In this document: in pieces, positions 36,603-54,357 of the stretch | Numbering within the stretch: position 1 is the stretch's first letter | Layout of the letters: every line of letters starts with the position of its first letter | NCBI RefSeq assembly: GCF_004022485.1 | Contig: NZ_CP034951.1 | Span: forward strand, 2,480,001-2,544,000 | DNA length: 64,000 nt | Reading direction: 5' to 3' | DNA from: Aequorivita sp. H23M31 | GTDB lineage: Bacteria; Bacteroidota; Bacteroidia; Flavobacteriales; Flavobacteriaceae | Notes under the pieces: model-generated | Seen by the model: only the letters and a program-made list of their open reading frames with translations | Database searches by the model: none | Told to the model about the DNA's origin: nothing | Made by a program: the position numbers and the translations under genes

Positions 36603-37709
36603 ATGGAAACGCAGGCAAAATACCAAGTCATAATGTACCGGCCCCTTCCCAATGCAGGACGGATCAAATTCTTTATACCCTATCCACTTACGGAAATGCG
36701 AGAGGCATTTAAAAAGTTGAACACTTCCTTTTATCATAACAACCAGAAGCTGTGGAGCATTGTCAATACACAAGCCAACCTGAAGCTGACTTCGGAACTA
36801 TTTGGAGACCTATTGCGGATTGAGGATTTAAAGCCCATTGCCAAAATGCCAACTGTAGCTTATTCCGAGAAGATACAAAACGAACTGGACAAAAACCATC
36901 AGAAAATGGTATTAAAGGGATTTAGCAATTCAACCATTCGCAGTTATCAACAGGTCTTAGGTCAATTTTTTAGCTATTTTGAAAAGGAGGATTATAAAAC
37001 CATAAGCAAGGAGCAGGTAGAAGGATTTGTCTATCACCTTATTTCAAAATACAACATCACCGAACAGAGACAAAACCTTCTTATCAGTGCCATCAAATGT
37101 TATTTTGAAAACACTCTGGAAATGCCGCGCGAATACTACAACATAACCAGGCCAAAAAAGAGCAAGGACCTTCCCAATGTTTTAAGTGTAGAAGAAGTAA
37201 GAAACTTGCTAACCCAACCCAAGAATATAAAGCATAAGGCGATTTTGCACATAATTTATGCGGGCGGTCTCCGTATTGGCGAAGTGATCCGGTTGCGTGT
37301 AACCGATGTTCGCAGTGCTGATGGCTACATTTTTATTAAAGACAGCAAAGGCAAGAAGGATCGGCATACAGTGCTTAGTACCTTTCTTTTGGAACTATTG
37401 CGGGAATATTATAAGGAACATAAGCCCAGCTACTGGCTCTTTGAAGGCCAGGACGGTGGCCAATATTCTGCAAAAAGCATTCAAAATATTTACCGAAAAG
37501 CAGTTAAGGAGACCAAGAGCAATCCGTGGAGCACGCCACACACCCTCCGGCATTCCTTCGCCACCCACTTAATGCAGCAAGGAGTGAATATTCGGTATAT
37601 TCAAAGTGCTTTGGGCCATTCCAGTAGCAAAACCACCGAAGTTTACACCCGGGTATTGGGAATAAGCAATAAAACCTTAAAAAGTCCTTTGGATACCTTA
37701 TTTGAATAG
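36603..37709 (+). CDS. Tyrosine recombinase of the cassette array (integron-integrase-like)
   Basis: 368 residues. An extra N-terminal region (about 1-90) precedes a SAM-like core-binding domain (about 92-178) and the catalytic domain (about 190-368). The catalytic set is complete: R224 (GGLRIGE), a lysine in SKGKKDR (K249 or K251), H313 and R316 (HTLRH), H339 (LGH) and the nucleophile Y348 (YTRV). The C-terminus ends VLGISNKTLKSPLDTL, echoing the SPLD ending of integron integrases and of many Bacteroidota XerC-like proteins. I do not see the IntI-specific insertion that normally lies between the conserved lysine region and the HxxR box. The gene is read toward the array, opposite to the usual intI orientation. 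Proposed role: it inserts and excises the cassettes between 37802 and 54357. Confidence 0.85.
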   Translation: METQAKYQVIMYRPLPNAGRIKFFIPYPLTEMREAFKKLNTSFYHNNQKLWSIVNTQANLKLTSELFGDLLRIEDLKPIAKMPTVAYSEKIQNELDKNHQKMVLKGFSNSTIRSYQQVLGQFFSYFEKEDYKTISKEQVEGFVYHLISKYNITEQRQNLLISAIKCYFENTLEMPREYYNITRPKKSKDLPNVLSVEEVRNLLTQPKNIKHKAILHIIYAGGLRIGEVIRLRVTDVRSADGYIFIKDSKGKKDRHTVLSTFLLELLREYYKEHKPSYWLFEGQDGGQYSAKSIQNIYRKAVKETKSNPWSTPHTLRHSFATHLMQQGVNIRYIQSALGHSSSKTTEVYTRVLGISNKTLKSPLDTLFE

Positions 37710-37719
37710 GTTACATTTG
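37688..37719 (+). promoter_or_regulatory. Candidate array promoter (Pc-like)
   Basis: TTTG at 37688-37691 and TACATTTG at 37712-37719 are separated by 20 bases, an excellent fit to the Bacteroidota TTTG-N19-21-TAnnTTTG promoter. It overlaps the recombinase stop codon and points into the candidate attI and cassette 1. Integrons usually have such a promoter (Pc) in this position. Confidence 0.6.
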
Positions 37720-37754
37720 ATAAAACGAAATTTCTCCGGTTTGCTCCGTCCAAA

Positions 37755-37810
37755 GTCAATATAAACGACACAAATCGCTCTGAAACTTCGTTTATAGACA
37801 TGTTATAGCC
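37755..37810 (+). other. Candidate attI site
   Basis: The first GTT crossover (GTTATAGCC, 37802-37810) is preceded by a stem TATAAACGA / TCGTTTATA (37760-37768 and 37788-37796) with flanking GTC/GAC. The right half, CGTTTATAGACATGTT, resembles the right arm of the short attC sites (CGTTTATACGAGACGTT). There is no R''-type word on its left side that pairs with a cassette, so it fits an attI rather than a normal attC. Confidence 0.55.
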
Positions 37811-37835
37811 AATGCCGAAAGAACGACAACAGAGA

Positions 37836-38843
37836 ATGAAACGAAATACTTTATACATATTTTTTGTGATTTTCCTAATATGGGGAAATGGATTTGCACA
37901 ACCTGGTGCTTATGGAGGTTCTTTGGAATTTAAAGTTTATAAAGACGGTAAACAAGTTGATTTATCAGGAAAAAATTGGAAAATTATTCCTAATAACGGT
38001 TTATTCAAAGAGCCGAGCAATCCATACAAACATCCAGATTTCTATCAAATAGTTTCGGTTCCTACTCCTATGGGAGGAATGGTAAAGCCTGATTTTTACT
38101 TGGATATTGTTTTCAAAAAGGATACTATGCGTGTTTATACTCCAAATTTCTCTAATACTGATGTCAAGTTAGATAGTATTACATTCAAAAAAGGCACTTA
38201 TAAAATTCCAAATCATATTTACGGGCTAAAACAAATGGTAGATGAAAATAAAGCACTTAATTACAAACCTACTTTAAATGAAGATTGGGAAGTGTTTTCA
38301 ACAAATGTTCTTGAAACCTACAAATGTTATATTGAAAAAATTGAAGATATAGAATTCTTAAGCAGGAGAAGTCCTTATGGTACTACTAAAGAATGGGATA
38401 AAATGTCCACAACTAAGCGTCAGTTATTTTCATTTAGAAATAATATTATTATGACAACAGAAGACAGAAAAAACTATGTCATATATGAAATTAAAAATAT
38501 TTCAGAAACTACTTTTTGGGGCGAAGATATTGGCGGATACATTAGCATAAATTCTATATTTCAAAAAAATAATACCATTTACGCTTTAATTGAAAAATTT
38601 TATGGGAGTACACAACCGTCTGGCACAACTTACGGTATTTATAAACTTCATTTTGTTGAAGAATCAATATCCGACACCCTTTTAGATTATTTGAAGAGAA
38701 AACAAATTGAGGAAGACTATGAAGCGGTAATCAAGTTGATTGAAAGACATCCAAGCCCAAGTGTTTGGGAAATTAAGTTAACTGAAATAAAGACCGAATA
38801 TGATATAGCTGTTAAATCTTTTAATGAAGCTCCCAAAAAATGA
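37836..38843 (+). CDS. Cassette 1: unknown secreted protein
   Basis: 335 residues from the ATG at 37836 (MKRNTLYIFFVIFLIWGNGFAQ), a clean signal peptide. An upstream in-frame start at 37812 would place eight charged residues in front and is less likely. I do not recognise a domain; the mature part is mixed alpha/beta with a charged C-terminus. It ends 4 bases into the next gene (ATGA overlap), so the two form an operon within the cassette. Confidence 0.7.
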   Translation: MKRNTLYIFFVIFLIWGNGFAQPGAYGGSLEFKVYKDGKQVDLSGKNWKIIPNNGLFKEPSNPYKHPDFYQIVSVPTPMGGMVKPDFYLDIVFKKDTMRVYTPNFSNTDVKLDSITFKKGTYKIPNHIYGLKQMVDENKALNYKPTLNEDWEVFSTNVLETYKCYIEKIEDIEFLSRRSPYGTTKEWDKMSTTKRQLFSFRNNIIMTTEDRKNYVIYEIKNISETTFWGEDIGGYISINSIFQKNNTIYALIEKFYGSTQPSGTTYGIYKLHFVEESISDTLLDYLKRKQIEEDYEAVIKLIERHPSPSVWEIKLTEIKTEYDIAVKSFNEAPKK

Positions 38844-39673
38844 AAAAAATAATTTACATATTGTTTATTTTAGTTTTTACAAGCTGTAGCAGTAAACTCT
38901 TCATTCCATATGAAAAAGACGGGGAAAAACTTGAAAGAATAGACTTGGTAAAGCTAAATAAATATGCCAATCTCGATAATAAGAAGTTCGATAAAACAAC
39001 TGCCTGGGGAAGTAGTGACAGACCTGATGGGAGTTATATACTAACTTCTAAAAATGAAACAACTAAAATTGCAGTAACAAAAAAAGACGGAATTTATATT
39101 TTCCTCAAAAAAATTAAAAAACAGAAAGACCAATATATTGTAACAGAGTACAATCCTGATGGAAGTTTTAAAAGCAAAACTATCCACAAAAAAACAACTG
39201 ATAATATTACTCCAAAAATCGAAGTTAATTATGAAAATCTTGTGCCAAGTTTTACCTATGAAAATTTTGAGGGCGGAACAACATCATTAACTGATTTTAT
39301 AGGGAGTTACGTTTATATTAACCTATGGGCAACTTGGAGCAAACCCTCTGAAAACGAAATAAAGCGCTTTAGTCAAATTGCAGAAGAATTTAGCAATAAT
39401 AAAAACATAGTGTTTATAAATCTTTCGATAGATGACCATAAAAATTATTCCAAATGGAGAGAAAGAGTTGAAAATGAAAATTTAAAAGGAATTCAATTAA
39501 TAGCGTCTGATGGGTGGGATTCTGAATTTCTAAAAAATTTAAAAATAACTCATATCCCTTGTGCTGTAATAATTGATCCAAAGGGTGACGTTGTTGAAAT
39601 TTATACGTTTACACCTTCTAATCCTAAACTGAAAGAGGAACTTTATAAACTTTTGGAAAATGATAATGAATGA
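38840..39673 (+). CDS. Cassette 1: thioredoxin-fold lipoprotein lacking the CxxC
   Basis: 277 residues. Lipoprotein signal with Cys16 (LVFTSC). The C-terminal half (about 132-277) is a TlpA/ResA-like thioredoxin fold: YINLWATWSKPSENE (160-174), FINLSIDDH and the cis-proline loop THIPCAV. Both active-site cysteines of the usual WATWCxPC are serine (S167, S170), so disulfide chemistry is not expected. Its N-terminal ~120 residues resemble no family I know. It overlaps the previous gene, and a decayed third gene follows. Confidence 0.75.
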   Translation: MKKIIYILFILVFTSCSSKLFIPYEKDGEKLERIDLVKLNKYANLDNKKFDKTTAWGSSDRPDGSYILTSKNETTKIAVTKKDGIYIFLKKIKKQKDQYIVTEYNPDGSFKSKTIHKKTTDNITPKIEVNYENLVPSFTYENFEGGTTSLTDFIGSYVYINLWATWSKPSENEIKRFSQIAEEFSNNKNIVFINLSIDDHKNYSKWRERVENENLKGIQLIASDGWDSEFLKNLKITHIPCAVIIDPKGDVVEIYTFTPSNPKLKEELYKLLENDNE

Positions 39674-39840
39674 AAAAACCGACAATTTTACTTTTTATAT
39701 TTTCTTCGGTTTTTGTTTAATCACAAGCAAACGTGGATAATATTGCTGTTGTAAAAGATTCTAGTTCCGAATTTCATACAGAAATCATCAAAGCGTGGTA
39801 AGCTAACCGAAAAAGCGGAAATGAAAGCTATGGAATATAA
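39670..39840 (+). pseudogene. Cassette 1: internally deleted copy of the cassette 2 gene family
   Basis: The frame starts at an ATG overlapping the previous stop and reads MKKPTILLFIFSSVFV, then a stop. It continues as NIAVVKDSSSEFHTEIIKAW, another stop, and NRKSGNESYGI. The two parts match the signal peptide and the C-terminus of the 422-residue protein at 40783 (IAIVKDSDTEFHSKIIKAW...). So the middle, over 300 codons, has been deleted and the remainder carries stops. Confidence 0.65.
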
Positions 39841-39857
39841 AAACCCGAAAAAGCACT

Positions 39858-39992
39858 GGCTATAACACGGTATATAAAAAATAGCGGGTTCGGTGCTAAA
39901 TTGAAAGTTTTGGCATATTAATAAAATTAGTTATAATCCGAAAATTAGTGCATTTTAAGCCGCTACTTTTCATATACCCAAACGTTATAGCC
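39858..39992 (+). repeat. attC1-like site (short type)
   Basis: R'' GGCTATAAC (39858-39866), left arm GTATAT...TAGCGG, right arm CCGCTA...ATATAC, R' GTTATAGCC (39984-39992). 135 bp. Cassette 1 starts with GTTATAGCC, the exact reverse complement of R''. Confidence 0.8.
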
Positions 39993-40015
39993 AATGCTGA
40001 AAAACGAAACCCTAA

Positions 40016-40783
40016 ATGAAAAAAACAGCCATTTTACTCTTTATATTTTTTGTTTCGCGCGCTTATTCACAGACAAATGAAGATAGACTTGCTATTGATT
40101 TTTACCCCTTAATGGCTATTGATACAATTTATAATCTGATTCAGATTGATAAAATCGAAGATAAACACTTTTTTTATCAGGACGAAAACACCATAAATCC
40201 CAATTTGTTTCTGTGTTCAGTTGAAAGAGAAAGAGAAGTTTTCGGAGAAAAAACACTTTTGTTTCAACAAACTTTAGTCAAAAAAGTCAATGACGTTTGG
40301 GTTTTGTATGATTTTCAGGATTATTGGGGAACTCCCGAAAAAGGTTTAATCGACAATACATTTTACATTATCAGCAATACAGTAGGAAATTCAGGACACA
40401 ACAGGGAATTGGGTGGCGGTTGGAGTTGGGGAAAAGAAAGTATTTGTTTTCTTGATTACAAAAAAATGACGATTAGTGAAGAACTTATAATTAATTATGG
40501 CTATGAAAGCAGTCATTTGGAAAACGATGAAGATATAAAAAAATACGTGGAATTAGAGCAAGAGGACGATTGTAGTTTTATAGCTACATCTGAAGAATGT
40601 GGTATGAAGTATGTTATTGAAAATTCGATACTGACAATAAGCCAATCTTATTGCAAGAATGAAACCTCACGAAACAAAGGAGAAAAAACCGAATTGATTG
40701 AAAAAACGGATATTGATTGTCCTTGTCTGTCAAATGGGAAATATCAATATATTGACGGGAACTTCGTAAAAACAGATTACTAA
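40016..40783 (+). CDS. Cassette 2: unknown secreted protein
   Basis: 255 residues with a signal peptide (MKKTAILLFIFFVSRAYSQ). No family recognised. The C-terminal region has several cysteines (ATSEECGMKY, SYCKNE, DCPCLS) that could form disulfides. It shares the last base of its stop with the start of the next gene, so it is translationally coupled. It shares its 5' context with the cassette 1 genes. Confidence 0.65.
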   Translation: MKKTAILLFIFFVSRAYSQTNEDRLAIDFYPLMAIDTIYNLIQIDKIEDKHFFYQDENTINPNLFLCSVEREREVFGEKTLLFQQTLVKKVNDVWVLYDFQDYWGTPEKGLIDNTFYIISNTVGNSGHNRELGGGWSWGKESICFLDYKKMTISEELIINYGYESSHLENDEDIKKYVELEQEDDCSFIATSEECGMKYVIENSILTISQSYCKNETSRNKGEKTELIEKTDIDCPCLSNGKYQYIDGNFVKTDY

Positions 40784-42051
40784 TGAGAAAAACCGTCTTT
40801 TTACTTTTTATGTTTTCCGTGATTTTTGCTTATTCCCAACCGAATGAGGAAAACAAAATCGTAATTGACACGGTTGAGTTTCATTTTAAGTTCAAAAGCA
40901 TTGCCGACATTACTTCTTTTGTACCACAAATCAAGAGTGGAATAAATCCCGTAGCTCAAAAGAAAATAAATGAAGATTTACAATCTTATTTTCAGGCTTC
41001 TTCAATTACACAGGATAGCGTTGCTTATGTAAAAGGACTTTTCAAAGAATTCAATGTTGAAAATTTAGAAGAATATTTTGAAGAAGTCGAAAGTATAAAA
41101 GAATGGAGAGGAGAATTTACAATAGGAAACCCCTATTATTTCGGAGATGAATTAGAAGAAAGTTTTAAAATAGAATACTTGTCTGAAAATTTATTGAATA
41201 TCGGTATTTCCAACCAAATACTACCTTATGGAGGACAATATCAGTTCTTTTTTGAAAGTATCTGTTACGATTTAAGAACAGGAAATAAATTAGACTTTGG
41301 TGATTTCTTTTCTGTCTCAAAAGAGGCTTTAAATCAAAGTTTACAAGAAAGTGGTTATTGGTTTGAATGGAACAACGAAACTCAAAAAACAGATAAAAAA
41401 CCTTTTGGACTTTATCACGAGGAATATATAATAGATGATTTTGTCTTTGGTAAGGAAGCTTGTAATCATTTTTATTTTAACAAATTAGGAAATGAAATTT
41501 ATCTGATGATAAAATTGAAGTGTGTGGGGAAATATCTAATGGATTATGGAATCTCATTAGAAAAACTAAAACCACACATCGAGTATTTTGAATTTAAAAA
41601 CCTGTTTCAATTATGGGGTAAAACTGCCAATTCCCTGATTGGCCAGGATTATTCTAAAATTGGAAACGAAATTGTATTTGAAGATTATTCCATAAAACAC
41701 ATTGGAGGTTATTTATTACCAAAAGACAGTTTTGATACCGATTTTGGAATTGCAGAATATTGGTCTGCCGAAAAACGATTTTTGTTGTTCTACAAAATCA
41801 ATGATTCGAAAAAGACCATAACCGATATTTTGGAAATTGATAAAAAAGAATTGAAAAACAGAAAACTAACGGAATATTGCAGTACAAAAAATGGTTTTGA
41901 TTCCGAGATAATAGCTATTGTAAAAGATTCTGATACTGAATTTCACTCCAAAATAATCAAAGCGTGGAAAACTAACCGAAAAAGCGGAAAATTTGAAAAA
42001 GTAAGTAACCGAAAAATAACAAAGTGCGGAAATGAAAACTACGGAATATAG
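40783..42051 (+). CDS. Cassette 2: unknown secreted protein
   Basis: 422 residues, signal peptide MRKTVFLLFMFSVIFAYSQ. I do not recognise a domain. Charged, mixed alpha/beta, with a C-terminal segment IAIVKDSDTEFHSKIIKAW that also survives in the decayed copy in cassette 1. The pair 40016-42051 is the complete content of cassette 2. It ends 19 bases before the attC. Confidence 0.65.
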   Translation: MRKTVFLLFMFSVIFAYSQPNEENKIVIDTVEFHFKFKSIADITSFVPQIKSGINPVAQKKINEDLQSYFQASSITQDSVAYVKGLFKEFNVENLEEYFEEVESIKEWRGEFTIGNPYYFGDELEESFKIEYLSENLLNIGISNQILPYGGQYQFFFESICYDLRTGNKLDFGDFFSVSKEALNQSLQESGYWFEWNNETQKTDKKPFGLYHEEYIIDDFVFGKEACNHFYFNKLGNEIYLMIKLKCVGKYLMDYGISLEKLKPHIEYFEFKNLFQLWGKTANSLIGQDYSKIGNEIVFEDYSIKHIGGYLLPKDSFDTDFGIAEYWSAEKRFLLFYKINDSKKTITDILEIDKKELKNRKLTEYCSTKNGFDSEIIAIVKDSDTEFHSKIIKAWKTNRKSGKFEKVSNRKITKCGNENYGI

Positions 42052-42069
42052 AAACCCGAAAAAAGCACT

Positions 42070-42204
42070 GGCTATAACACTGTATAAGCGTAATGCGGGA
42101 TTTATAGCTAAATTGAACAATTCGTCACGTAAGAAAATTTTGGATAAAATGAAAATATCATCTTCGAAAACCCGCACTACGCTTATACTTGAACGTTGTG
42201 GACC
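42070..42204 (+). repeat. attC2-like site (short type)
   Basis: R'' GGCTATAAC (42070-42078), left arm GTATAAGCGTAATGCGGG, right arm CCCGCACTACGCTTATAC, crossover GTT at 42195. The arms differ from perfect complementarity at one base, A opposite C (a G-T wobble on the bottom strand). Cassette 2 starts with GTTATAGCC, matching R''. Confidence 0.82.
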
Positions 42205-42557
42205 AGTTAAAAGAATAAAATTTTATCTAATAATTCTCAGGCTTATTTGCGAAAATGAAAACACGGTTTTTAGGCTCAGGAATCTCAAAATGCCATTTTA
42301 AGTAAGTGTTTATTTACCAAGGATAGTTGAATGATTCTCTGGATGAAGATTTTTTTGGCAGGTGTTTGTTTTCAAAATAAGAGCTGGGCATTTTGAGATT
42401 CCGACTATCGCAGTTTCTTATTTGGTTAAGATAGTAGATGACTCAAGTGGATGAAGATTTTTTTGGTAGGTGTTTATTTACGAATAATTAAAAACCGTGT
42501 TTTCGGCAAACTCAAAAGTTAAGTACTGATCAGCAAAGGCCTGCACCAAGGGAAACC
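42195..42557 (+). other. Cassette 3 body: no gene, nested inverted repeats
   Basis: No credible frame. An outer 15-bp stem (42257-42271 with 42490-42504) encloses an inner 16-bp stem (GGAATCTCAAAATGCC at 42279-42294 with 42387-42402). Around the inner stem lie two diverged direct repeats with the shared core GGATGAAGATTTTTTTGG (42341 and 42449). The start GTTGTGGACC and end GGCCCACAAC differ at one base. It may encode a structured RNA or be a composite of decayed elements. Confidence 0.55.
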
Positions 42558-42752
42558 GGCCCACAACAATGGCTATAAGCAATGCGGGGTTCGTGTTTAA
42601 TCCAAAATCAGGTGTATATTTACGAAGTCGCCAAAACTCTGTTTTGGCGTAAAAAAATGAAATTTAAGTAAAAACAGAGTTTTGGCTTAGTGCTGATTCG
42701 AAAATTTTTTCACTTTTGGCCCGCACTGCTCATAGCCCAAACGTTGGGCAAT
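42558..42752 (+). repeat. attC3-like site (long type)
   Basis: R'' GGCCCACAAC, left arm GGCTATAAGCAATGCGGG, internal stem GCCAAAACTCTGTTTT / AAAACAGAGTTTTGGC, right arm CCCGCACTGCTCATAGCC, crossover at 42743. Confidence 0.82.
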
Positions 42753-43309
42753 ATTGAGAAAGAGAAAATTGTAGTCGGAAAACAGCGGAAAAGGGGTCCG
42801 ATTTTTTTTTGGAAAATGGTGTTTTAAAGGAAAAAACCAAAATGTTTCTCGAACTAAATTGCGGAACGGAAAAAAAAGAAGTTTTCGGAACTTTTGCCAT
42901 TGGACAGGATTTCGAGAAAAGCCATTCAACTCAAGGAAAGTTCGTGAAAGAAAGAAAAAAATCCAGCGGACTTTTAGCAACGGATTCTGAATTTGTTTGG
43001 AGGAAAATCAGCCATCAGAATAGATAAACGACTAAAGCCAGTTTAATTTTGCGATGGCTATTGAAAGATTAAAAAAAAGAAAAAAAAGAAGCGCAATCTG
43101 AGCGGAACAGAACGTAGGGTAAACATTGCCCAACAAGGGCTATAAGCAATGCTGGGTTTGTGCTAAATCCGAAAGCAGTTGTATATTTACGAAGTCGCCA
43201 AAACTTTGTTTTGGCGATAAAATGAAAATTTAAGTAAAAAACAAAGTTTTGGCTTATTGCGAATTCGAAAATGATTGCATTTTTGCCCCGCACTGCTCAT
43301 AGCCGAGAC
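42743..43309 (+). other. Cassette 4: small-ORF cassette, identical to cassette 11
   Basis: 567 bases (attC included) identical to 48217-48783. Start GTTGGGCAAT, end ATTGCCCAAC. The only plus frame is 72 codons (42809-43027, MENGVLKEKTKMFLELNCGTE...). Its upstream bases line up with the start of the 79-codon frame of cassette 10, shifted by indels in T- and A-runs, so it is probably a frame-damaged relative. Minus-strand frames here only reflect the attC repeat. Confidence 0.6.
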
Positions 43310-46648: not shown

Positions 46649-46653
46649 AGCCA

Positions 46654-46860: not shown

Positions 46861-46868
46861 CAAACAGA

Positions 46869-47207: not shown

Positions 47208-47211
47208 AGTT

Positions 47212-47544: not shown

Positions 47545-47548
47545 GCAC

Positions 47549-47684
47549 TACTGGCAACATTGCATAAACGCAATAGCGGGTAAGTGCTTAACCCCAAGGT
47601 AACTTTATAAATTTAAAGTCTGGTATAAATCAAAAAGTCAGTGCGTCAATCCCGCTACTGCGCTTATACTAAACGTTGCCCGAT
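47549..47684 (+). repeat. attC9-like site (short type)
   Basis: R'' TACTGGCAAC (47549-47558) matches the cassette start GTTGCCAGTA. Arms as in attC8, right arm with GCGCTTATAC; crossover at 47675. Confidence 0.83.
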
Positions 47685-48216
47685 ATTTAGAATAAAAAAA
47701 TCAACAATGGAAAACCAGCGGAAAAGCGTTCGATTTTTTTTGAAAATTTGGTCTTTTAAGAAAAAAAAGTTGCTCGGACTGGATTGCGAAACGGAAAACT
47801 GGTTCAGCGGACTTAAAAACGTAGCGGAAAAAAGAGAAAGATTTCTCAGGATTTCGGAAAAGAAACCAATCATTGCGTCGGACTTTTATCACAAGAACGC
47901 AAGCAGCAGCGGAAAAGAAAGCCTATTTGCGAAATCTGTGTTTTAATCATCAAACACAAGTGATTATCTTAGATGGCCTGTGAATAGATAAAAAGCAGAG
48001 CGGAAGGAGAACGGAGGGGAATGCATATAAACATCGGGCAACAATGGCTATAAGCAATGCGGGATAAGTGGAAAATCCAAAAGCAGTTGTATATTTACGA
48101 GGTCGCCAAAACTTTTTGGCGATTGGAACAAAAAAGAAATTTAATAACAAAAGTTTTGGCTTAGTGCGAATTCGAAAATAATTGCATTTTTGCCCCGCAC
48201 TGCTCATAGCCGAGAC
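47675..48216 (+). other. Cassette 10
   Basis: Start GTTGCCCGAT, end ATCGGGCAAC. Contains the only apparently intact member (47707) of the small-ORF family found broken in cassettes 4, 5, 6 and 11. Confidence 0.6.
47707..47946 (+). CDS. Cassette 10: small basic protein, unknown
   Basis: 79 residues (MENQRKSVRFFLKIWSFKKK), rich in Lys, Ser and Phe. The start at 47707 is the ATG inside the cassette; a longer frame beginning at 47641 would cross the crossover point. Related frames in cassettes 4, 6 and 11 are shifted, and the C-terminal third is conserved in cassettes 5 and 6, with some amino-acid changes. No known family. It may not be a true protein gene. Confidence 0.35.
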   Translation: MENQRKSVRFFLKIWSFKKKKLLGLDCETENWFSGLKNVAEKRERFLRISEKKPIIASDFYHKNASSSGKESLFAKSVF

Positions 48217-48226
48217 GTTGGGCAAT
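48033..48226 (+). repeat. attC10-like site (long type)
   Basis: R'' ATCGGGCAAC (48033-48042), left arm GGCTATAAGCAATGCGGG, right arm GCACTGCTCATAGCC, internal stem around GCCAAAAC and GTTTTGGC; crossover at 48217. Confidence 0.83.
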
Positions 48227-48783
48227 ATTGAGAAAGAGAAAATTGTAGTCGGAAAACAGCGGAAAAGGGGTCCGATTTTTTTTTGGAAAATGGTGTTTTA
48301 AAGGAAAAAACCAAAATGTTTCTCGAACTAAATTGCGGAACGGAAAAAAAAGAAGTTTTCGGAACTTTTGCCATTGGACAGGATTTCGAGAAAAGCCATT
48401 CAACTCAAGGAAAGTTCGTGAAAGAAAGAAAAAAATCCAGCGGACTTTTAGCAACGGATTCTGAATTTGTTTGGAGGAAAATCAGCCATCAGAATAGATA
48501 AACGACTAAAGCCAGTTTAATTTTGCGATGGCTATTGAAAGATTAAAAAAAAGAAAAAAAAGAAGCGCAATCTGAGCGGAACAGAACGTAGGGTAAACAT
48601 TGCCCAACAAGGGCTATAAGCAATGCTGGGTTTGTGCTAAATCCGAAAGCAGTTGTATATTTACGAAGTCGCCAAAACTTTGTTTTGGCGATAAAATGAA
48701 AATTTAAGTAAAAAACAAAGTTTTGGCTTATTGCGAATTCGAAAATGATTGCATTTTTGCCCCGCACTGCTCATAGCCGAGAC
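48217..48783 (+). other. Cassette 11: exact duplicate of cassette 4
   Basis: Identical by eye to 42743-43309 over 567 bases at a constant offset of 5474. Identity starts at the GTT crossover and ends at the next crossover, while the flanking attC sites differ. Carries the same 72-codon frame (48283-48501). Confidence 0.75.
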
Positions 48784-48791
48784 GTTGCCTG
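48599..48791 (+). repeat. attC11-like site (long type)
   Basis: Same as attC4 up to the crossover at 48784. R'' ATTGCCCAAC at 48599-48608. Confidence 0.83.
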
Positions 48792-49271
48792 TCATTTAAG
48801 GAGATAAGATCATAAAGAAAAATGTACGTTTTTTTCAATTTTTTTCGGACACTTAAGCGGATCTGAACAACATAGCGGAATCGAGTAAAAAGACTTCCAA
48901 TCAATACGCAAGCAACAACGGAATCGGTCCGATGCCTTGAGCAACAGAGCGGAGCAACGCCGAAACTTTAGCTCGTTGCGGAATTAAGGGAAAGAGAATA
49001 AAATTTCGGAAACCCACTGACAAAGTCGGATTTCAATGACCAACCAGTTACTGTGCGGAACAATGATGGAAACAGCGCACAAAAACGCCAGGCAACATCG
49101 GTTATAAGCAATGCGGGATAAACGCTTAATCCAAAAGCAGTTGTATATTTGCGAAGTCGCCAAAATTTCATTTTGGCGACAATAAAAAAATAAAGTAAAA
49201 AATAAAATTTTGGCTTATTGCGAGCTCGAAAATGATTGCATTTTTGCCCCGCACTGCCCATAACCCAGCCC
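48784..49271 (+). other. Cassette 12: non-coding
   Basis: 488 bases, start GTTGCCTG, end CAGGCAAC. No plus-strand frame of useful length. Frequent GCGGA words. Very similar to cassette 13, which lies directly after it. Confidence 0.5.
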
Positions 49272-49279
49272 GTTGCCTG
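49089..49279 (+). repeat. attC12-like site (long type)
   Basis: R'' CAGGCAAC (49089-49096); left arm GTTATAAGCAATGCGGG, right arm CCGCACTGCCCATAAC (note that both arms changed together from GCTATAA / TCATAGC), internal stem GCCAAAATTT / AAATTTTGGC, crossover at 49272. Confidence 0.83.
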
Positions 49280-49760
49280 TCATTTAAGGAGATAAGATCA
49301 TAAAGAAAAATGTACGTTTTTTTCAATTTTTTTCGGACACTTAAGCGGATCTGAACAACATAGCGGAATCGAGTAAAAAGACTTCCAATCAATACGCAAG
49401 CAACGGCGGAATCGGTCCGATGCCTTGAGCAACAGAGCGGAGCAACGCCGAAACTTTAGCTCGGTTGCGGAATTTAGGGAAAGAGAATGAAATTTCGGAA
49501 ACCCACTGACAAAGTCGGATTCCAATGACCAAGCAGTTACTGTGCGGAACAATGATGGAAACAGCGCACAAAAACGCCAGGCAACATCGGTTATAAGCAA
49601 TGCGGGATAAATGCTTAATCCAATAGCAGTCGTATATTTACGAGGTCGCCAAAATTTCATTTTGACGACAATAAAAAAATAAAGTAAAAAATAAAATTTT
49701 GGCTTATTGCGAGCTCGAAAAGGATTGCATTTTTGCCCCGCACTGCCCATAACCCAGCCC
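49272..49760 (+). other. Cassette 13: near copy of cassette 12
   Basis: 489 bases, a few substitutions and a one-base length difference from cassette 12. Same start and end words. No gene seen. Tandem position suggests a recent duplication. Confidence 0.55.
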
Positions 49761-49770
49761 GTTGCCAGTA
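49578..49770 (+). repeat. attC13-like site (long type)
   Basis: R'' CAGGCAAC (49578-49585), arms as in attC12, crossover at 49761. Confidence 0.82.
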
Positions 49771-49816
49771 ATGCAAGAAAAATTCACAGGTTTCCATATA
49801 ATTCAACTTTTTGACT

Positions 49817-49824
49817 TACCTTTG
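49817..49824 (+). promoter_or_regulatory. TA cassette 14 -7 element
   Basis: TACCTTTG, same position relative to the toxin gene as in cassette 9, with the same TTTGTC...GACAAA palindrome after it. Confidence 0.5.
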
Positions 49825-49850
49825 TCTTTTAAAAAGGACAAACAAACAGA

Positions 49851-50189
49851 ATGAATCCGAAATTTGAAGTTATTTTCCTTGAACAAGCGATTGACTTTAT
49901 GGCAAAAATTGACCCTAAGCCAAAAGCTAAGATTTACTACAACATCGACAAGGCCAAATTGACCCACGACCCAAAACTTTTTAAAAAACTAAAAGGTGAA
50001 ATATGGGAATTTAGGACAAAATATATCGGACTTCAATACAGACTTCTCGCTTTCTGGGACAAAACTGACAAAGAAGAAACCCTTGTCCTAGCGACCCACG
50101 GAATTATTAAGAAAACAGATAAAGTGCCTAAAGCTGATATAGAAAAGGCGAAAAAGATTATGGCGGAATATTTTGCCCAAAAAGAATAG
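49851..50189 (+). CDS. Cassette 14: HigB/Gp49-like toxin (second copy)
   Basis: 112 residues, almost identical to the toxin at 46869: P-K-P instead of P-M-P near residue 22, H instead of N near 35, and a different last residue. Same core motifs (GEIWEFRTKYIGLQYRLLAF). It overlaps nothing and is followed by the antitoxin after three bases. Confidence 0.85.
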   Translation: MNPKFEVIFLEQAIDFMAKIDPKPKAKIYYNIDKAKLTHDPKLFKKLKGEIWEFRTKYIGLQYRLLAFWDKTDKEETLVLATHGIIKKTDKVPKADIEKAKKIMAEYFAQKE

Positions 50190-50192
50190 GTT

Positions 50193-50525
50193 ATGGAAAC
50201 AAAAAAGAAAAAAATGAAAATGATGACCCTTGACCAAATGAAGGATAAGGATTTGGGAGAGATTGGAACACCTGAGCGCGATAAATACGAGTTCGACTTG
50301 AAAATGGAAGTCTTGGGCGATATGATAAAGTCGGTCCGGAAAGAAAGAAATTTGACACAAGAACAACTCGGAGAATTAATTGGGGTTCAGAAATCCCAAA
50401 TCTCAAAATTAGAGCGGAATACAAAAAATGTAACAATCGAAACCATTTTAAAAGTATTCGGAGCCTTGAAAGCGAACGTAAAATTCAGCGTTGAAATGAA
50501 CGAATCGGAGTTCACAGTGGCTTAA
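50193..50525 (+). CDS. Cassette 14: HigA-like HTH antitoxin (second copy)
   Basis: 110 residues, METKKKKMKMMTLDQMKDKD start, HTH_3 domain (LTQEQLGELIGVQKSQISKL). It differs from the cassette 9 antitoxin at a few residues in the first half and at many synonymous positions; the second half is identical. Cross-neutralisation of the two toxins is therefore likely. Confidence 0.85.
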   Translation: METKKKKMKMMTLDQMKDKDLGEIGTPERDKYEFDLKMEVLGDMIKSVRKERNLTQEQLGELIGVQKSQISKLERNTKNVTIETILKVFGALKANVKFSVEMNESEFTVA

Positions 50526-50529
50526 GCAC

Positions 50530-50657
50530 TACTGGCAACAATGCATAAACGCAATAGCGGGTAAGTCCTTAGCCCAAAAGTAATTTTATATATTTAAGGT
50601 CTGGTATAAATCGAAAAGTCAGTGCGCCAATCCCGCTACTGCGTTTATACGAGACGT
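50530..50657 (+). repeat. attC14-like site (short type), interrupted by an IS
   Basis: R'' TACTGGCAAC (50530-50539), arms GCATAAACGCAATAGCGG and CCGCTACTGCGTTTATAC, then GAGACGT and the IS. The site continues after the IS at 51852 (ACGTTGTGCAC), so the crossover GTT is split by the insertion. Confidence 0.82.
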
Positions 50658-51851
50658 CAGACTGCGCAATAACCTCCCTTTCTTGATAACTTTGTTGATT
50701 ACCTTTTAGTGCATTGCCCAGATCGCATTAAGATATTGGCTATCTTGATGTTATGGAATTTATAACAGGATTTAATCGGGACCAATTGGTAATGATGGAC
50801 TTTGAGTCTTGCGTAGGGCTGGAGTCCTGGGCGCGTACCGTTGATATGTTCGTGGATATCCTTCCTATGGAGGAACTGGGCTTTAGGGACGTGCTCAACT
50901 CCGAGGGAAGGCCTCCCTACCATTCGTCGGATATGCTCAAGCTCAAGGTCCGTAATCCTGCACCGCAACATCATCAACGTGGGCTATAACGTACTGGCAG
51001 GCTGCGATGCAAAGCACAAGCTATTTGTGAACAACGATACCGGGAGCGTGAACGATACCCATGCGCTCTCCCCAATGGCACTGGACGCCAAGGAACTCCT
51101 GGGCGTGGAAAGTATGGACATCCTTACCGATAAGGGATACACCACCGCCAAGCATCTGGATATCTGCACCAGGAACGGGATCACGCCCTATTCCTCACCC
51201 AAGGACCATTCTTCGCACCACAACGGACGCTATCCAATGGTCGATTTCAAGTATGATGGTATACAGGACACCTACACCTGTCCGGCGGATCAGGTACTGG
51301 CCACCAATGGAAGTATCTACGATAAGGCGGGCCACAAGGTCAAGCACTACAAGAACAGGGAGGCCTGCGGGGCATGTCCCGTCAGAGCGCTGTGCACCAC
51401 AAACAAGAACGGGCGCTTTATAGAGCGCTCCATTTACCAGGAGGCTCTGGACGAGAACCAAAAAAGAGTGGAAGCAAGACCAGAATATTATAGGCTCAGG
51501 CAACAGGTAACCGAGCACCAGTTTGGGACACTGAAAAGGCAATGGGGTTTTACCCATACATTGATGAGGGGGAAACAAAATGTACTCTCCGAGGTTAACC
51601 TGATGATGATCTGTTATAACCTCACCCGGCTTGTATCCATTCTGGGCCCAGAGGTATTGAAAAACAGGCTGAAAAGGCTTGTGCCCGGATTTTCGGCCCT
51701 ATTTGAAGCGGTTTGGGCCCACATGAACAGCTTTCTTTTACCACCCAATACCTATCCAAATTTTAAACCTACAAGAAATACAGTCCTAACGGCTCTCTAA
51801 ATAGCAATTGATTCATTAGTTTTAATCCGAATTGAGTTGATGCACAGACTC
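50658..51851 (+). mobile_element. IS1182-type element, defective
   Basis: Bounded by ACGT direct repeats (50654-50657 and 51852-51855) and by imperfect terminal inverted repeats (CAGACTGCGCAATAAC left; GAGTCTGTGCATCAAC as reverse complement of the right end). 1194 bp, shorter than usual for the family because the transposase gene has an internal deletion. Its GC content is visibly higher than the cassettes around it. Confidence 0.75.
50753..51800 (+). pseudogene. IS1182-family transposase, internally deleted and frameshifted
   Basis: The N-terminus (MEFITGFNRDQLVMMDF...PPYHSSDMLKLK) is in one frame and the rest (NIINVGYNVLAGCDAKHKLF...CGACPVRALCT...EHQFGTLKRQWGF) in another. The junction lies near 50945. 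IS1182 transposases are normally well over 400 residues; about 150 or more are missing, including part of the catalytic DDE region. The element cannot move on its own. Confidence 0.75.
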
Positions 51852-51884
51852 ACGTTGTGCACAAGCTCAAAAAACCGATAATAA

Positions 51885-52163
51885 ATGGAACATTATAGAC
51901 TTGAATTTAGTGAAGATCAACAATGGTTAAGATTAGACAACTATAGTCATCCAGCAAACACCAACGGATTCATAACTGTAATGGAAAAATGTACCGACAG
52001 AGAATGTCATATTTTCGAAGCCTTTTTGACAAGAAGTGATGGAATATTATTAGGCGATTCGAAAATTAAGTATCGAAATGTGGACGTCTTGGAAGCAGTT
52101 CAAGAATTAGAGACATTTCTTAAAACTCTATCAGAATACAATCTATCCATTTCATCTAAATGA
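51885..52163 (+). CDS. Cassette 15: unknown small protein
   Basis: 92 residues (MEHYRLEFSEDQQWLRLDNY), no signal, no family recognised. It overlaps the CdiI-like gene by four bases (ATGA), so the two are co-translated. The position before an immunity gene might suggest a related role, but that is speculation. Confidence 0.55.
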   Translation: MEHYRLEFSEDQQWLRLDNYSHPANTNGFITVMEKCTDRECHIFEAFLTRSDGILLGDSKIKYRNVDVLEAVQELETFLKTLSEYNLSISSK

Positions 52164-52579
52164 ATATTCAAAATAAATCTTTGGAGGAATTAGAAAATGA
52201 TTATTGGGATGAAGAAATTGAATTCCCTTCTGACCTTGTAATTAAATGTCATAAATATCGAAAAATACCGATTAAGAACTTAACAATTGAACACTTAAGA
52301 CTTCTGATTTCCCAACAAATCGGAACGGAATATTTAATCGGAATTGCACTCGAAAAACTCGAACAGAATATATTGACTGAAGGCGATTTTTACGAAGGTG
52401 ATTTACTTATATCTGTTTCAAGTTTACCAACGGAATTTTGGGCTGAAAAACAAAATAAATTTCGGACTTATAAAAGTTTAGTAGAACGGAATTCTGAATT
52501 GATAAAGACCGAACTCGGTTTAAAGAAATTTGACCAAATTAATGAAAACATAAAAGCCAGTGCACAACAATGGCTATAA
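52160..52579 (+). CDS. Cassette 15: CdiI-like immunity protein
   Basis: 139 residues. The pattern SLEELENDYW, VIKCHKYRKIPIKNLTIEHL, LLISQQIGTEYLIGIALEKL, EGDFYEGDLLISV and LPTEFW matches contact-dependent growth-inhibition immunity proteins (CdiI_2-type). These bind and block the toxin tip of CdiA. No cdiA is in the window, so it is an orphan immunity gene. The last residues and the stop are encoded within the attC site (GCACAACAATGGCTATAA). Confidence 0.75.
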   Translation: MNIQNKSLEELENDYWDEEIEFPSDLVIKCHKYRKIPIKNLTIEHLRLLISQQIGTEYLIGIALEKLEQNILTEGDFYEGDLLISVSSLPTEFWAEKQNKFRTYKSLVERNSELIKTELGLKKFDQINENIKASAQQWL

Positions 52580-52740
52580 GCAATGCGGGATAAGTGCCAA
52601 ATCCAGAAGCAGTTGTAAATTTACGAAGTCGCCAAAACTTTTTGGCGATTTGAATAATAAGAAACTAAAGAACAAAAGTTTTGGCTTATTGCGAGTCCGA
52701 AAATGAATGCATTTTTGCCCCGCACTGCTCATAGCCGTAC
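52560..52740 (+). repeat. attC15-like site (long type), right end damaged
   Basis: R'' GTGCACAAC (52560-52568) matches cassette start GTTGTGCAC across the IS. Arms are complete (GGCTATAAGCAATGCGGG, GCACTGCTCATAGCC), but after CATAGCCG comes TACAATT in place of AGACGTT, so the crossover sequence is lost. Confidence 0.75.
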
Positions 52741-52750
52741 AATTAAAAAA

Positions 52751-53443
52751 ATGAAGAAAAACGAAAAAGACTTACTTATTTGGCTTCTTATTTTGGCAAT
52801 AGTTTTTATTGTTTTAATCAAATTTGTATTAGCGGATATAACCGAAATATTAGATAAAGGAAGTGAGTTTGGAGAGATTATATATAATTTAAGTTTAGCA
52901 TATATTTCGAGTTATATATTTTATCAAATTGTAGTAGCAATTCCTCAAAAAAGAAATGAAAAAAACATTCACGAAAGCACAAGTTTTATATCATATGGAA
53001 TTATTCATAGTGGAAGTAGAATAGTTAAACCAAAAAAATCACAGGAAGCCTATTTGGATATTACTGATTCAGCAAATGAAATTAGTGAGTCTGAATTTGA
53101 AAACATTTGTAAATCAATTGGTTTATATGACACATTTGACTTCAAATGGACTAAAAGCGAAATCAGTCAAATCACTTACTTGGAGCATTTTAAAAAAACA
53201 AGAAAGAAAATAATAGAGAACAAATCTGAATTATTTGCTTTTATGCCTCATTTAGAAACTGAACATATTAAATTAATTAATGAAATTGTTCAAAGTCCAT
53301 TTATATCTATGGGACATCACTATTTAGAAAATGAAAAAATATTAGATAAGAAAGAAAAATTGGATTTTATGTTTCCAATGCTTTTTGACTTTTACACTAA
53401 AATCAGAAGATTAAATAAGTATATGAACGGAATAAAACTGTAG
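52751..53443 (+). CDS. Cassette 16: unknown membrane protein
   Basis: 230 residues from the ATG at 52751 (MKKNEKDLLIWLLILAIVFI). An open extension to 52703 lies within attC15 and is unlikely to be used. Two membrane helices (about 8-28 and 42-64) and a long cytoplasmic, charged C-terminal part. No family recognised. Its stop lies at the start of attC16. Confidence 0.6.
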   Translation: MKKNEKDLLIWLLILAIVFIVLIKFVLADITEILDKGSEFGEIIYNLSLAYISSYIFYQIVVAIPQKRNEKNIHESTSFISYGIIHSGSRIVKPKKSQEAYLDITDSANEISESEFENICKSIGLYDTFDFKWTKSEISQITYLEHFKKTRKKIIENKSELFAFMPHLETEHIKLINEIVQSPFISMGHHYLENEKILDKKEKLDFMFPMLFDFYTKIRRLNKYMNGIKL

Positions 53444-53573
53444 CCAACACCGTATATAATCCATTGCTAGTACTGGCTTACTTACGAAAACCCTCGCGGA
53501 TTTTCTATCTGTTTTTTATTTGCTAACTTTCGTGCTTATACACGCCACTTATCATATACAAACACGTTGTGCG
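53441..53573 (+). repeat. attC16-like site (short type, divergent)
   Basis: R'' TAGCCAAC (53441-53448), left arm GTATATAAT..., right arm ...TTATCATATAC, crossover GTTGTGCG at 53566. The cassette start that should match R'' (GTTGGCTA) is missing because junction 15/16 is damaged. Confidence 0.6.
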
Positions 53574-53620
53574 TCAGCTGAAAAAAAATCCCCTCTTCAT
53601 TAAAAAGTTGCGAAATTTAG

Positions 53621-53947
53621 CAACTTACTGTAACAATATTTTTAGAAAGTGCTGATGATTTTATAAAAAATCTCGACGCCAAAACCCGAAAGAAAGTATT
53701 TTATAATGTAAGATTAGCTGAAAAATCAAATGACCCCAAACTTTTCAAAAAGTTAACAGATGAGATATGGGAATTTAGAATCCCATTTTCAAACAAACAA
53801 ATAAGATTGCTGGCTTTTTGGGATAAAAGAAAAAGTGAGGACACTTTAGTAATTGCAACAAATGGCTTTATAATAAAAACACAGAAAACCCCAAAAGCTG
53901 ATATTAATAAAGCCAAAAAAATAATGAGTGAATACCTAAAAGATTAA
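53621..53947 (+). pseudogene. Cassette 17: HigB-like toxin without start codon
   Basis: Open from a TAG-CAA boundary to the TAA at 53945-53947, 108 codons. It reads ...TVTIFLESADDFIKNLDAKT, TDEIWEFRIPFSNKQIRLLA and KTPKADINKAKKIMSEYLKD, a full HigB-like sequence. No ATG, GTG or TTG precedes the conserved core in frame. Either the start has mutated, leaving the antitoxin alone, or an unusual start (e.g. ATA at 53636) is used. Confidence 0.6.
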
Positions 53948-53951
53948 AATT

Positions 53952-54272
53952 ATGGCAAAATTGAAAGCATATAGCTTATCCGAAATGGAAGATAAATATA
54001 TAGGAAAGAAAGGAACAAAAGAAAGAGATGAGTATGAATATGAATTGCGTATGGATTTGTTGGGACGTATGATAAGAACAACTCGAAAAGAACGCAACTT
54101 GACTCAAGAAGAATTGGGAGAATTGGTTGGCGTCAATAAATCTCAAATATCCAAACTTGAGAACAATGCAAATAGTGCCAGAATTGAAACGATAATAAGA
54201 GTATTCAAAGCATTAAAAGCAGAAATTCAATTCAACGTAAAACTTGAAGACAATAGAATTGAAATAGCGTAA
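53952..54272 (+). CDS. Cassette 17: HigA-like HTH antitoxin
   Basis: 106 residues, HTH_3 domain near 45-95 (LTQEELGELVGVNKSQISKL). Same family as the antitoxins of cassettes 9 and 14 but clearly diverged. Its own start is clear, four bases after the broken toxin stop. Confidence 0.75.
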   Translation: MAKLKAYSLSEMEDKYIGKKGTKERDEYEYELRMDLLGRMIRTTRKERNLTQEELGELVGVNKSQISKLENNANSARIETIIRVFKALKAEIQFNVKLEDNRIEIA

Positions 54273-54279
54273 AGCCGAA

Positions 54280-54357
54280 CGCACAACAAGGCATAAACGC
54301 AATAGCGGGTAAGTGCAAAACCTAAAAGTAATTTTATAAATTTAAGGTCTGATATAA
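54280..54357 (+). repeat. attC17-like site, left half only
   Basis: R'' CGCACAAC (54280-54287) matches cassette start GTTGTGCG at 53566. Left arm GCATAAACGCAATAGCGGG and the conserved AAGGTCTGATATAAA follow, but the right arm is absent. The array ends here. Confidence 0.75.

What the first reader, a model, noticed from the sequence alone, without database searches (positions are those of the whole stretch)
36603..54357. Integron-like cassette array with its own recombinase in a flavobacterial chromosome
A tyrosine recombinase gene is followed by 17 cassettes, all plus-strand, separated by attC-like palindromic sites of about 135 or 190 bp. Cargo is diverse: TA pairs, immunity gene, secreted proteins, peptidase and gene-free cassettes. 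The order of site elements (R'', L'', spacer, L', R') and the GTT crossover are those of integrons, but the recombinase and the arm sequences are not those of known integrons as I know them. Established: integrons are best described in Proteobacteria and some other phyla. Inferred: this is a Bacteroidota integron-like system.
Basis: partly seen in the sequence, partly recalled or inferred. Interest (0 to 1): 0.97.

Follow-up and report, generated by a model that had tools for sequence, protein, structure and literature searches.

The report
Integron lacking the hairpin-reading domain
A flavobacterial chromosome carries 17 gene cassettes in a row beside a recombinase that lacks the protein part thought essential for handling such cassettes, and the same pairing recurs across the phylum Bacteroidota, so it is likely an overlooked kind of integron (a bacterial gene-collecting system).

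Summary
A tyrosine recombinase (36603-37709) is followed by 17 same-strand cassettes separated by palindromic sites. In 16 of 17, the first 13 bases (from GTT) recur reverse-complemented at the cassette's own 3' end (0 of 100,000 permutations), the signature of circular integron cassettes. Duplicated cassettes, and one shared with another species, end at the GTT points. The recombinase lacks the 42-residue insertion (I2 'additional domain') present in 30 of 30 canonical IntI compared. Its sites have no extra base on either L arm in 92 of 155 cases (1 of 50 at canonical loci) and show one-sided A·C mismatches, which are T·G wobbles on the bottom strand. A model of the sites matches 113 of 149 Bacteroidia genomes, 80 of 83 with a strong recombinase match, and 0 of 20 outside the phylum; in another class it follows the I2-less enzyme (15 of 16 genomes), not canonical IntI (3 of 39). 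Best reading: an integron that works without I2. It fails IntI's defining feature, so I call it a new variant. Recombination was not tested; whether it predates canonical integrons is unresolved (AU p 0.116). Nothing seen in ten searches of an open-access library describes it.

The parts
36603..37709 (+). I2-less integron-type tyrosine recombinase, 368 aa, with an extra N-terminal domain of about 80-95 aa; its stop comes about ten codons earlier than in 13 of 13 same-genus relatives examined
   Evidence: PF00589 and SAM-like domains; TIGR02249 194.5 bits in two stretches against cut-off 265; gap at the additional domain against 2A3V; R224, K249, H313, R316, H339 invariant and Y348 nearly so in 51 aligned rows (their role as catalytic residues is recalled); C-terminus
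37710..37804 (+). attI-like region between the int stop codon and the first GTT (37802)
   Evidence: first cassette starts at GTT 37802; similar sequence follows orthologous ints; recombination not tested
37802..39983 (+). cassette 1: unknown 343-aa protein and 277-aa thioredoxin-like protein
39984..42194 (+). cassette 2: two proteins of 255 and 422 aa, putatively secreted (by eye)
42195..42742 (+). cassette 3: no convincing gene; shared with another species (L051)
42743..43309 (+). cassette 4: no convincing gene; identical to cassette 11
43310..43876 (+). cassette 5: no convincing gene
43877..44425 (+). cassette 6: no convincing gene; copy of cassette 10 (89%)
44426..45219 (+). cassette 7: 194-aa protein, putatively secreted (by eye)
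45220..46778 (+). cassette 8: 466-aa M1-peptidase-like protein (below cut-off)
46779..47674 (+). cassette 9: Gp49-like and HTH pair (toxin-antitoxin-like)
47675..48216 (+). cassette 10: copy of cassette 6
48217..48783 (+). cassette 11: copy of cassette 4 (100% over body and site)
48784..49271 (+). cassette 12: no convincing gene; copy of 13
49272..49760 (+). cassette 13: copy of 12 (97.8%)
49761..50657 (+). cassette 14: near copy of cassette 9 (94.6%)
50658..51851 (+). IS1182-like element with broken transposase, flanked by ACGT repeats at 50654-50657 and 51852-51855, inserted at the crossover of cassette 14's site
   Evidence: DDE transposase domain, weak IS1182 match, flanks and ends
51854..52736 (+). 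cassette 15: unknown 92-aa protein and CdiI_3 immunity protein
52737..53565 (+). cassette 16: 246-aa unknown protein; start GTT lost
53566..54357 (+). cassette 17: HTH antitoxin-like protein; its site is truncated
39863..39987 (+). attC-like site 1 (short type)
42075..42198 (+). attC-like site 2 (short type)
42564..42746 (+). attC-like site 3 (long type)
43131..43313 (+). attC-like site 4 (long type)
43702..43880 (+). attC-like site 5 (long type)
44247..44429 (+). attC-like site 6 (long type)
45043..45223 (+). attC-like site 7 (long type)
46659..46782 (+). attC-like site 8 (short type)
47555..47678 (+). attC-like site 9 (short type)
48039..48220 (+). attC-like site 10 (long type)
48605..48787 (+). 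attC-like site 11 (long type)
49093..49275 (+). attC-like site 12 (long type)
49582..49764 (+). attC-like site 13 (long type)
50536..50659 (+). attC-like site 14 (short type), cut at the crossover by the IS
52565..52745 (+). attC-like site 15 (long type), right end damaged
53445..53569 (+). attC-like site 16 (short type)
54284..54357 (+). truncated attC-like site 17 (left half)

Best explanation
This is an integron-like cassette array whose recombinase, which lacks the I2 domain found in all 30 canonical integron integrases compared, is predicted to excise, insert and reorder circular cassettes at the folded bottom strand of palindromic sites that carry T·G wobbles where canonical sites carry extrahelical bases. 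Shown: the array; the own-end complementarity of the cassettes; the missing I2; fewer extra bases in the arms than at canonical loci; the one-sided A·C mismatches (bottom-strand T·G wobbles) at preferred places; co-occurrence of enzyme and sites; cassette copies that end at GTT. Inferred: the enzyme acts on these sites; it acts on a single folded strand; the wobbles, not I2 and extrahelical bases, choose the strand; new cassettes enter at the attI-like region next to the recombinase.
For: Own R'/R'' complementarity 10-12 of 13 in 16 of 17 cassettes, 0 of 100,000 permutations. Cassette boundaries: C4 and C11 bodies and sites 100% identical, falling to 0.27 after the next GTT; C6/C10, C9/C14 and C12/C13 89-98% inside, 0.17-0.45 outside; cassette 3 is 89% identical over its whole length to a cassette of another species whose recombinase is 69% identical, with 0.45 and 0.25 outside. 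I2 absent: 61-62 residues between two catalytic motifs in 37 of 38 rows with at least one site (66 in the other), 103 in 30 of 30 canonical; 61-62 in 16 of 16 ints of another class. One gapped method on both kinds of locus: no extra base on either L arm in 92 of 155 I2-less sites against 1 of 50 at canonical loci; none on the L'' arm in 116 of 155 against 8 of 50; A·C mismatches 263 against 7; position 11 mismatched in 154 of 155 against 16 of 50. With symmetric scoring A·C 228, C·A 7 in 124 sites. Chains of two or more cassettes in 33 of 101 loci, 0 of 100 shuffled. Sites 69 downstream and 9 upstream of the recombinase on its strand in 80 loci. Site model: 80 of 83 Bacteroidia genomes with a strong recombinase match, 33 of 66 others; 0 of 20 outside the phylum; in another class 15 of 16 with the I2-less int, 11 of 84 without.
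Against: No recombination was observed. 33 of 66 Bacteroidia genomes without a strong recombinase match still have sites; these may be orphan clusters, decayed enzymes or false matches. 63 of 155 I2-less sites do show an extra base on one or both arms. The bottom strand is the stabler in 14 of 16 circle-form folds, but often by under 2 kcal/mol. The 124-125 sites and the site model come from an ungapped, A·C-tolerant scan and so favour that type (133 sites with A·C allowed, 87 with G·T allowed, 78 with neither); the gapped finder also scores A·C slightly above G·T (0.5 against 0). The canonical set holds some single, possibly chance, chains, and the 33 of 101 loci include a Mesorhizobium locus (L136) that is probably chance. 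The strong-match cut-offs were set at gaps seen in the data.
Confidence: 0.82

Rival explanations
1. A canonical integron that merely has a divergent integrase: an ordinary member of the known kind.
For: Array, attC-like architecture, GTT crossover and R'/R'' complementarity are those of integrons; TIGR02249 matches at 194.5 bits; own-complementarity beyond 7 bases also occurs at canonical loci.
Against: The additional domain that published surveys use to recognise IntI is absent, the curated cut-off is not reached (194.5 of 265), extra arm bases are much rarer, and the site model follows the I2-less enzyme rather than canonical IntI: among 78 genomes of another class without the I2-less enzyme, 3 of 39 with canonical IntI and 8 of 39 without it have sites.
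Confidence: 0.1
2. Palindromic repeats spread by other means (transposition, gene conversion, homologous recombination) with an unrelated Xer-like recombinase sitting beside them.
For: Duplicate cassettes could arise by unequal crossing over; many genomes have sites without a strong recombinase match (33 of 66); further clusters away from an intact recombinase exist in this genome.
Against: Repeats spread in such ways have no reason for each unit's first 13 bases to be complementary to its own last 13; identity falls at GTT, not inside the repeat; sites lie mostly downstream of the recombinase (69 against 9); enzyme and sites co-occur in two classes.
Confidence: 0.06
3. The recombinase works on double-stranded sites (Xer or XerA style, with two strand exchanges) and the palindromes are paired core sites; no hairpin is involved.
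For: Sequence and fold are as close to XerA as to VchIntI; without I2 nothing known would block a second strand exchange (PMC4792948, PMC7790495, passages read).
Against: Double-stranded recombination gives no reason for mismatches fixed on one side (228 A·C, 7 C·A), nor for stems kept between cassettes of unrelated sequence.
Confidence: 0.15

Closest known systems
Canonical integrons (IntI with I2 domain, attI, attC cassettes; e.g. Vibrio VchIntIA, PDB 2A3V)
   Same: Tyrosine recombinase next to a one-way array of cassettes, each with a palindromic site and mostly one gene, two, or none; GTT crossover; R'/R'' complementarity; R and L stems with an unpaired spacer; gene-free and toxin-antitoxin-like cassettes; further clusters elsewhere in the genome.
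   Different: No additional domain (61-62 against 103 residues); extra arm bases much rarer, A·C mismatches instead, and a near-invariant, mismatched A at cassette position 11. In the window the recombinase is co-directional with the array and carries an extra N-terminal domain; in another class 10 of 16 ints have 33 or fewer residues before the core, and in two of six regions examined the array lies on the opposite strand.
XerA/Xer recombinases (PDB 5HXY, 4A8E; NF040815)
   Same: Same core and catalytic domains; best sequence and fold matches together with VchIntI.
   Different: Below the XerA cut-off (195.2 of 220); C-terminal SPLD tail like IntI; associated with cassette arrays.
'Integron-like' simple tyrosine recombinase subgroup of Smyshlyaev et al. 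2021 (PMC8138268, passages read)
   Same: That paper says the CAT-domain insertion is not fully conserved in its integron-like subgroup, so enzymes of this sort may lie within it.
   Different: The passages read call the insertion essential for integron function and describe no cassette arrays for members without it.

Membership tests
Integron (IntI plus attC cassettes) | Tyrosine recombinase with intact catalytic residues | tested here: met
   R224, K249, H313, R316, H339 invariant and Y348 nearly invariant in 51 aligned rows; PF00589 136.5 bits
Integron (IntI plus attC cassettes) | IntI-specific additional (I2) domain around patch III | tested here: not met
   43 residues missing against 2A3V; 61 residues against 103 in 30 of 30 canonical
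Integron (IntI plus attC cassettes) | NCBIfam TIGR02249 integron integrase cut-off | tested here: not met
   194.5 bits, cut-off 265
Integron (IntI plus attC cassettes) | Array of same-direction cassettes bounded by palindromic sites with GTT crossover | tested here: met
   17 cassettes; 16 of 16 intact or near-intact sites found by model on one strand
Integron (IntI plus attC cassettes) | R'' complementary to the same cassette's own R' | tested here: met
   16 of 17 cassettes, 0 of 100,000 permutations
Integron (IntI plus attC cassettes) | R' consensus GTTRRRY | tested here: not met
   8 of 155; but only 12 of 50 at canonical loci of this phylum, so it discriminates poorly here
Integron (IntI plus attC cassettes) | Extrahelical bases on one arm of the folded site | tested here: not met
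   no extra base on the L'' arm in 116 of 155 sites against 8 of 50 at canonical loci; none on either arm in 92 of 155 against 1 of 50. Not met in most sites, not in all
Integron (IntI plus attC cassettes) | attI next to the integrase and promoter Pc | tested here: inconclusive
   similar segment after orthologous ints; a TAnnTTTG element after int is shared by 13 of 14 relatives but there lies inside the reading frame, so its conservation may be coding; neither recombination nor transcription tested
Integron (IntI plus attC cassettes) | Cassettes gained, lost or copied at GTT | tested here: met
   duplicates and an interspecies cassette end at GTT; comparative evidence only
Integron (IntI plus attC cassettes) | Hit by IntegronFinder's attC covariance model | not testable with these tools
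   model not available; Rfam gave 0 hits at gathering thresholds
Integron (IntI plus attC cassettes) | Recombination of the folded bottom strand | not testable with these tools
   needs an assay; wobble asymmetry only suggests it
XerA/Xer recombinase | Curated cut-offs for XerA, XerC, XerD | tested here: not met
   195.2 of 220, 160.2 of 335, 170.1 of 329.6 bits

The most novel reading that the evidence does not exclude
Hairpin-cassette recombination does not need I2 or extrahelical bases: these enzymes read the bottom strand through T·G wobbles at fixed places, and canonical IntI arose from within this I2-less group, so cassette arrays came before the I2 domain. That would answer the published chicken-and-egg question of which came first.
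Probability: 0.35. Interest if true: 0.97.

Novelty: new variant of a known kind. Interest (0 to 1): 0.9.

Why it matters
The I2 domain is held to be what lets integrases act on folded single-stranded sites; it is described as necessary for IntI1 and as not found in any other protein (PMC7790495, passages read), it is used to recognise IntI (PMC9668308, PMC9024848, PMC2426708, passages read), and Escudero et al. pose its joint origin with extrahelical bases as a chicken-and-egg paradox (PMC4792948, passages read). A large natural set of array-bearing recombinases without I2, whose sites mostly lack those bases, makes that question testable. Surveys that require I2 would miss this gene-capture system, which the data here place in much of Bacteroidia.

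Tried and rejected
Rfam for the window: 0 hits at gathering thresholds. A known domain for the N-terminal extension: no Pfam match by sequence (best E 0.15) and no PDB match at E 0.001 for its own model, so no function is claimed. I first thought that this N-terminal domain might stand in for I2; rejected, because 10 of 16 I2-less ints of another class have 33 or fewer residues before the core, and 9 of those 10 genomes still have the sites. Extended R'/R'' complementarity as a unique mark: rejected, canonical loci of this phylum have it too. GTTRRRY as a discriminator: poor here. A Bacteroidetes-type promoter (TAnnTTTG) after int as the cassette promoter: dropped from the mechanism, because in the 13 relatives that share it the reading frame runs through it. 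Claim that I2-less array enzymes are ancestral: not established; with Xer as root they form a grade around a canonical clade supported 100/100, but one clade for them is not rejected (p-AU 0.116 and 0.115). Arrays outside Bacteroidota: L132 (Spirochaetes), L122 (Fibrobacterota) and L101 gave one or two cassette-like units by my scan, but the site model gave 0 of 20 such genomes: lead only. Defence models on 10 cargo proteins: one weak hit (17.9 bits). Phages: 3 records, partial matches only.
Full report
OBSERVATION. The recombinase ORF lies at 36603-37709. It is followed by 17 cassettes on the same strand. I set each cassette's start at GTT and its R'' end at AAC from the raw sequence and compared the first 13 bases with the reverse complement of the cassette's own last 13: 16 of 17 match at 10-12 positions, cassette 16 at 4. 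For 11 distinct cassettes, own ends agree at 8.45 of the 10 bases beyond GTT, other cassettes' ends at 3.26, and 0 of 100,000 permutations reach the observed sum. This is expected if each unit was once a circle closed at GTT, and it is the textbook signature of integron cassettes (recalled). A stem scan finds 13 sites in the array and 1 on the + strand of the other 44 kb; on the reverse strand of the whole window the same scan gave 14, not inspected one by one, since palindromes also fold there. A covariance model from 60 short sites, 3 of them from this window, finds all 16 intact or near-intact sites on the + strand, plus one minus-strand match on site 2.

THE HOST. Thirteen of the 27 other genomes of that genus searched have a full-length orthologue at 69-83% identity. 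The window's copy stops about ten codons earlier than in the 13 same-genus relatives examined.

THE RECOMBINASE. Pfam finds the tyrosine recombinase domain and a SAM-like core-binding domain. TIGR02249 (integron integrase) matches at 194.5 bits, in two stretches and below its cut-off of 265; XerA matches at 195.2 of 220. Against VchIntI (PDB 2A3V) the alignment breaks where the additional domain sits: query residues 275 to 293 face chain residues 186 to 247. Over 139 aligned rows the residues between two catalytic motifs number 103 in the 30 of 30 canonical IntI loci (the 30 best-scoring) and in one locus of the relatives' set (L138), and 61-62 in 37 of 38 rows with at least one site (66 in L071); 16 of 16 ints from another class also have 61-62. 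An AlphaFold2 model (mean pLDDT 83.8) has XerA and VchIntI as its best PDB matches (E 8e-17 and 1e-16). The first 80-95 residues form an extra domain without a significant match by sequence or fold.

THE SITES. On the top strand the L stems show mismatches that are nearly all A (left) against C (right): with symmetric scoring 228 A·C, 7 C·A, 16 T·G and 3 G·T among 2,197 positions in 124 sites. On the bottom strand A·C becomes a T·G wobble, so the bottom strand folds into a more continuous stem. These sites came from an A·C-tolerant scan; allowing G·T instead finds 87 sites, neither 78, A·C 133. In the R stem the cassette's eleventh base is A in 124 of 125 sites and is mismatched, mostly A/G (109). 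To compare with canonical sites I used one gapped chain finder on both kinds of locus (it scores A·C 0.5 and G·T 0). I2-less loci, 155 cassettes: no extra base on the L'' arm in 116, on neither arm in 92, A·C mismatches 263, position 11 mismatched in 154. Canonical loci, 50 cassettes in 14 regions: 8, 1, 7 and 16. Five canonical regions hold 37 of the 50, with none free of extra bases; several others gave a single, possibly chance, chain. Shuffled loci give no chain of two or more in 100; real loci give 33 of 101 (many contigs end soon after the recombinase, and one of the 33, L136, is probably chance). In 80 loci a stricter scan finds 69 sites downstream and 9 upstream of the recombinase on its strand. 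Folding energies favour the bottom strand in 14 of 16 circle-form sites, often by little.

MOVEMENT. Cassettes 4 and 11 are identical over body and site, and identity falls to 0.27 after the next GTT (before the start it stays at 0.85; both follow long-type sites). C6/C10, C9/C14 and C12/C13 show 89-98% inside and 0.17-0.45 outside (downstream of C14 lies the IS). Cassette 3 is 89% identical, over its whole length, to a cassette of another Aequorivita (L051) whose recombinase is 69% identical; outside the boundaries identity is 0.45 and 0.25, against 0.28 on average at random (95th percentile 0.38). An IS1182-like element sits exactly at one crossover between ACGT repeats.

DISTRIBUTION. The model also finds clusters in this genome at 134-154 kb, near recombinase gene fragments, and at 2603-2616 kb; my chain finder confirms only one or two cassettes in each region fetched. 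In 149 Bacteroidia genomes, 113 have model matches at E 1e-5. Of 83 with a strong recombinase match (a gap in the scores separates 1e-84 and better from 1e-65 and worse, where Xer begins) 80 have sites, against 33 of the other 66 (Fisher p 2e-11). The model finds nothing in 20 genomes outside the phylum that hold related recombinases. In another class of the phylum 26 of 100 genomes have sites: 15 of 16 with the I2-less enzyme and 11 of 84 without (p 4e-10). Canonical IntI, common in the phylum outside Bacteroidia (over the cut-off in 105 of 395), does not predict them: of the 78 genomes without the I2-less enzyme that both searches covered, 3 of 39 with canonical IntI and 8 of 39 without it have sites.

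DESCENT. In a careful tree (52 rows) canonical IntI form one clade (100/100) nested among I2-less enzymes when rooted on Xer (L013 was labelled array-bearing by hand, on one site; a quick tree of 72 rows agrees). The array-bearing I2-less enzymes form a grade, but holding them as one clade is not rejected (p-AU 0.116). So 'older than I2', 'sister to canonical' and 'lost I2' all remain open.

MECHANISM. Most likely the recombinase binds the folded bottom strand of a site and exchanges one strand at GTT with the attI-like region or another site, so cassettes leave and enter as circles. In canonical integrons the extrahelical bases, contacted by I2 and a beta hairpin, favour the bottom strand and block the second cleavage (PMC3053210 and PMC4792948, passages read). 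Here I2 is absent and those bases are mostly absent, which fits their co-evolution, and the wobbles are the obvious candidate for strand choice. What blocks the second exchange is unknown. How cassettes are expressed is not settled either: the promoter-like element after int may be coding.

LITERATURE. IntegronFinder 2.0 reports, for Bacteroidetes proper, In0 elements earlier and then one complete integron in Salinibacter ruber, besides Chlorobi and Ignavibacteriae; reviews list Bacteroidota among integron-bearing phyla (PMC9024848, PMC8618304, passages read). The library lacks most subscription papers and all preprints.

Noticed in passing
window 50654-51855: An IS1182-like element with a broken transposase sits exactly at the GTT crossover of one site, between ACGT repeats; the sites may be targets for this IS.
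   Followed up: partly
own genome G000:C1 134,500-153,700 and 2,602,800-2,615,900 (L193-L195): Two more clusters of model matches in this genome; the first lies by recombinase gene fragments (152.4-153.0 kb), the second had no recombinase match. The chain finder confirmed only one or two cassettes in each region.
   Followed up: partly
window 36603-36890: The recombinase carries an N-terminal domain of about 80-95 aa with a recurring W...W pattern in the alignment of 46 relatives; 10 of 16 I2-less ints of another class have 33 or fewer residues there. Nothing known matches it.
   Followed up: partly
window 37690-37720: The window's recombinase gene stops about ten codons before its relatives; a promoter-like TAnnTTTG just after the stop is coding sequence in the 13 relatives that share it.
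   Followed up: yes
L237 (G103 C44), L238 (G095 C33): In another class the same kind of sites lie on the strand opposite to the I2-less recombinase; G095, G083, G111 and others also score above the cut-off for canonical IntI, so two integron kinds live side by side.
   Followed up: partly
L132 (Spirochaetes MAG): An I2-less enzyme close to the canonical clade has two cassette-like units on the opposite strand with A/G at position 11; the site model did not confirm it.
   Followed up: partly
PLSDB plasmids, hits H1-H15: Relatives of the recombinase at about 38% identity sit on plasmids: 50 of 75 matching records are Acinetobacter; all 15 rows shown have an annotated IS26 transposase under the match and 11 of them list an animal or manure source. 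Described only.
   Followed up: no
window 54723-55919: An IS256-family transposase gene follows the truncated end of the array and may have been involved in cutting off its 3' end.
   Followed up: no
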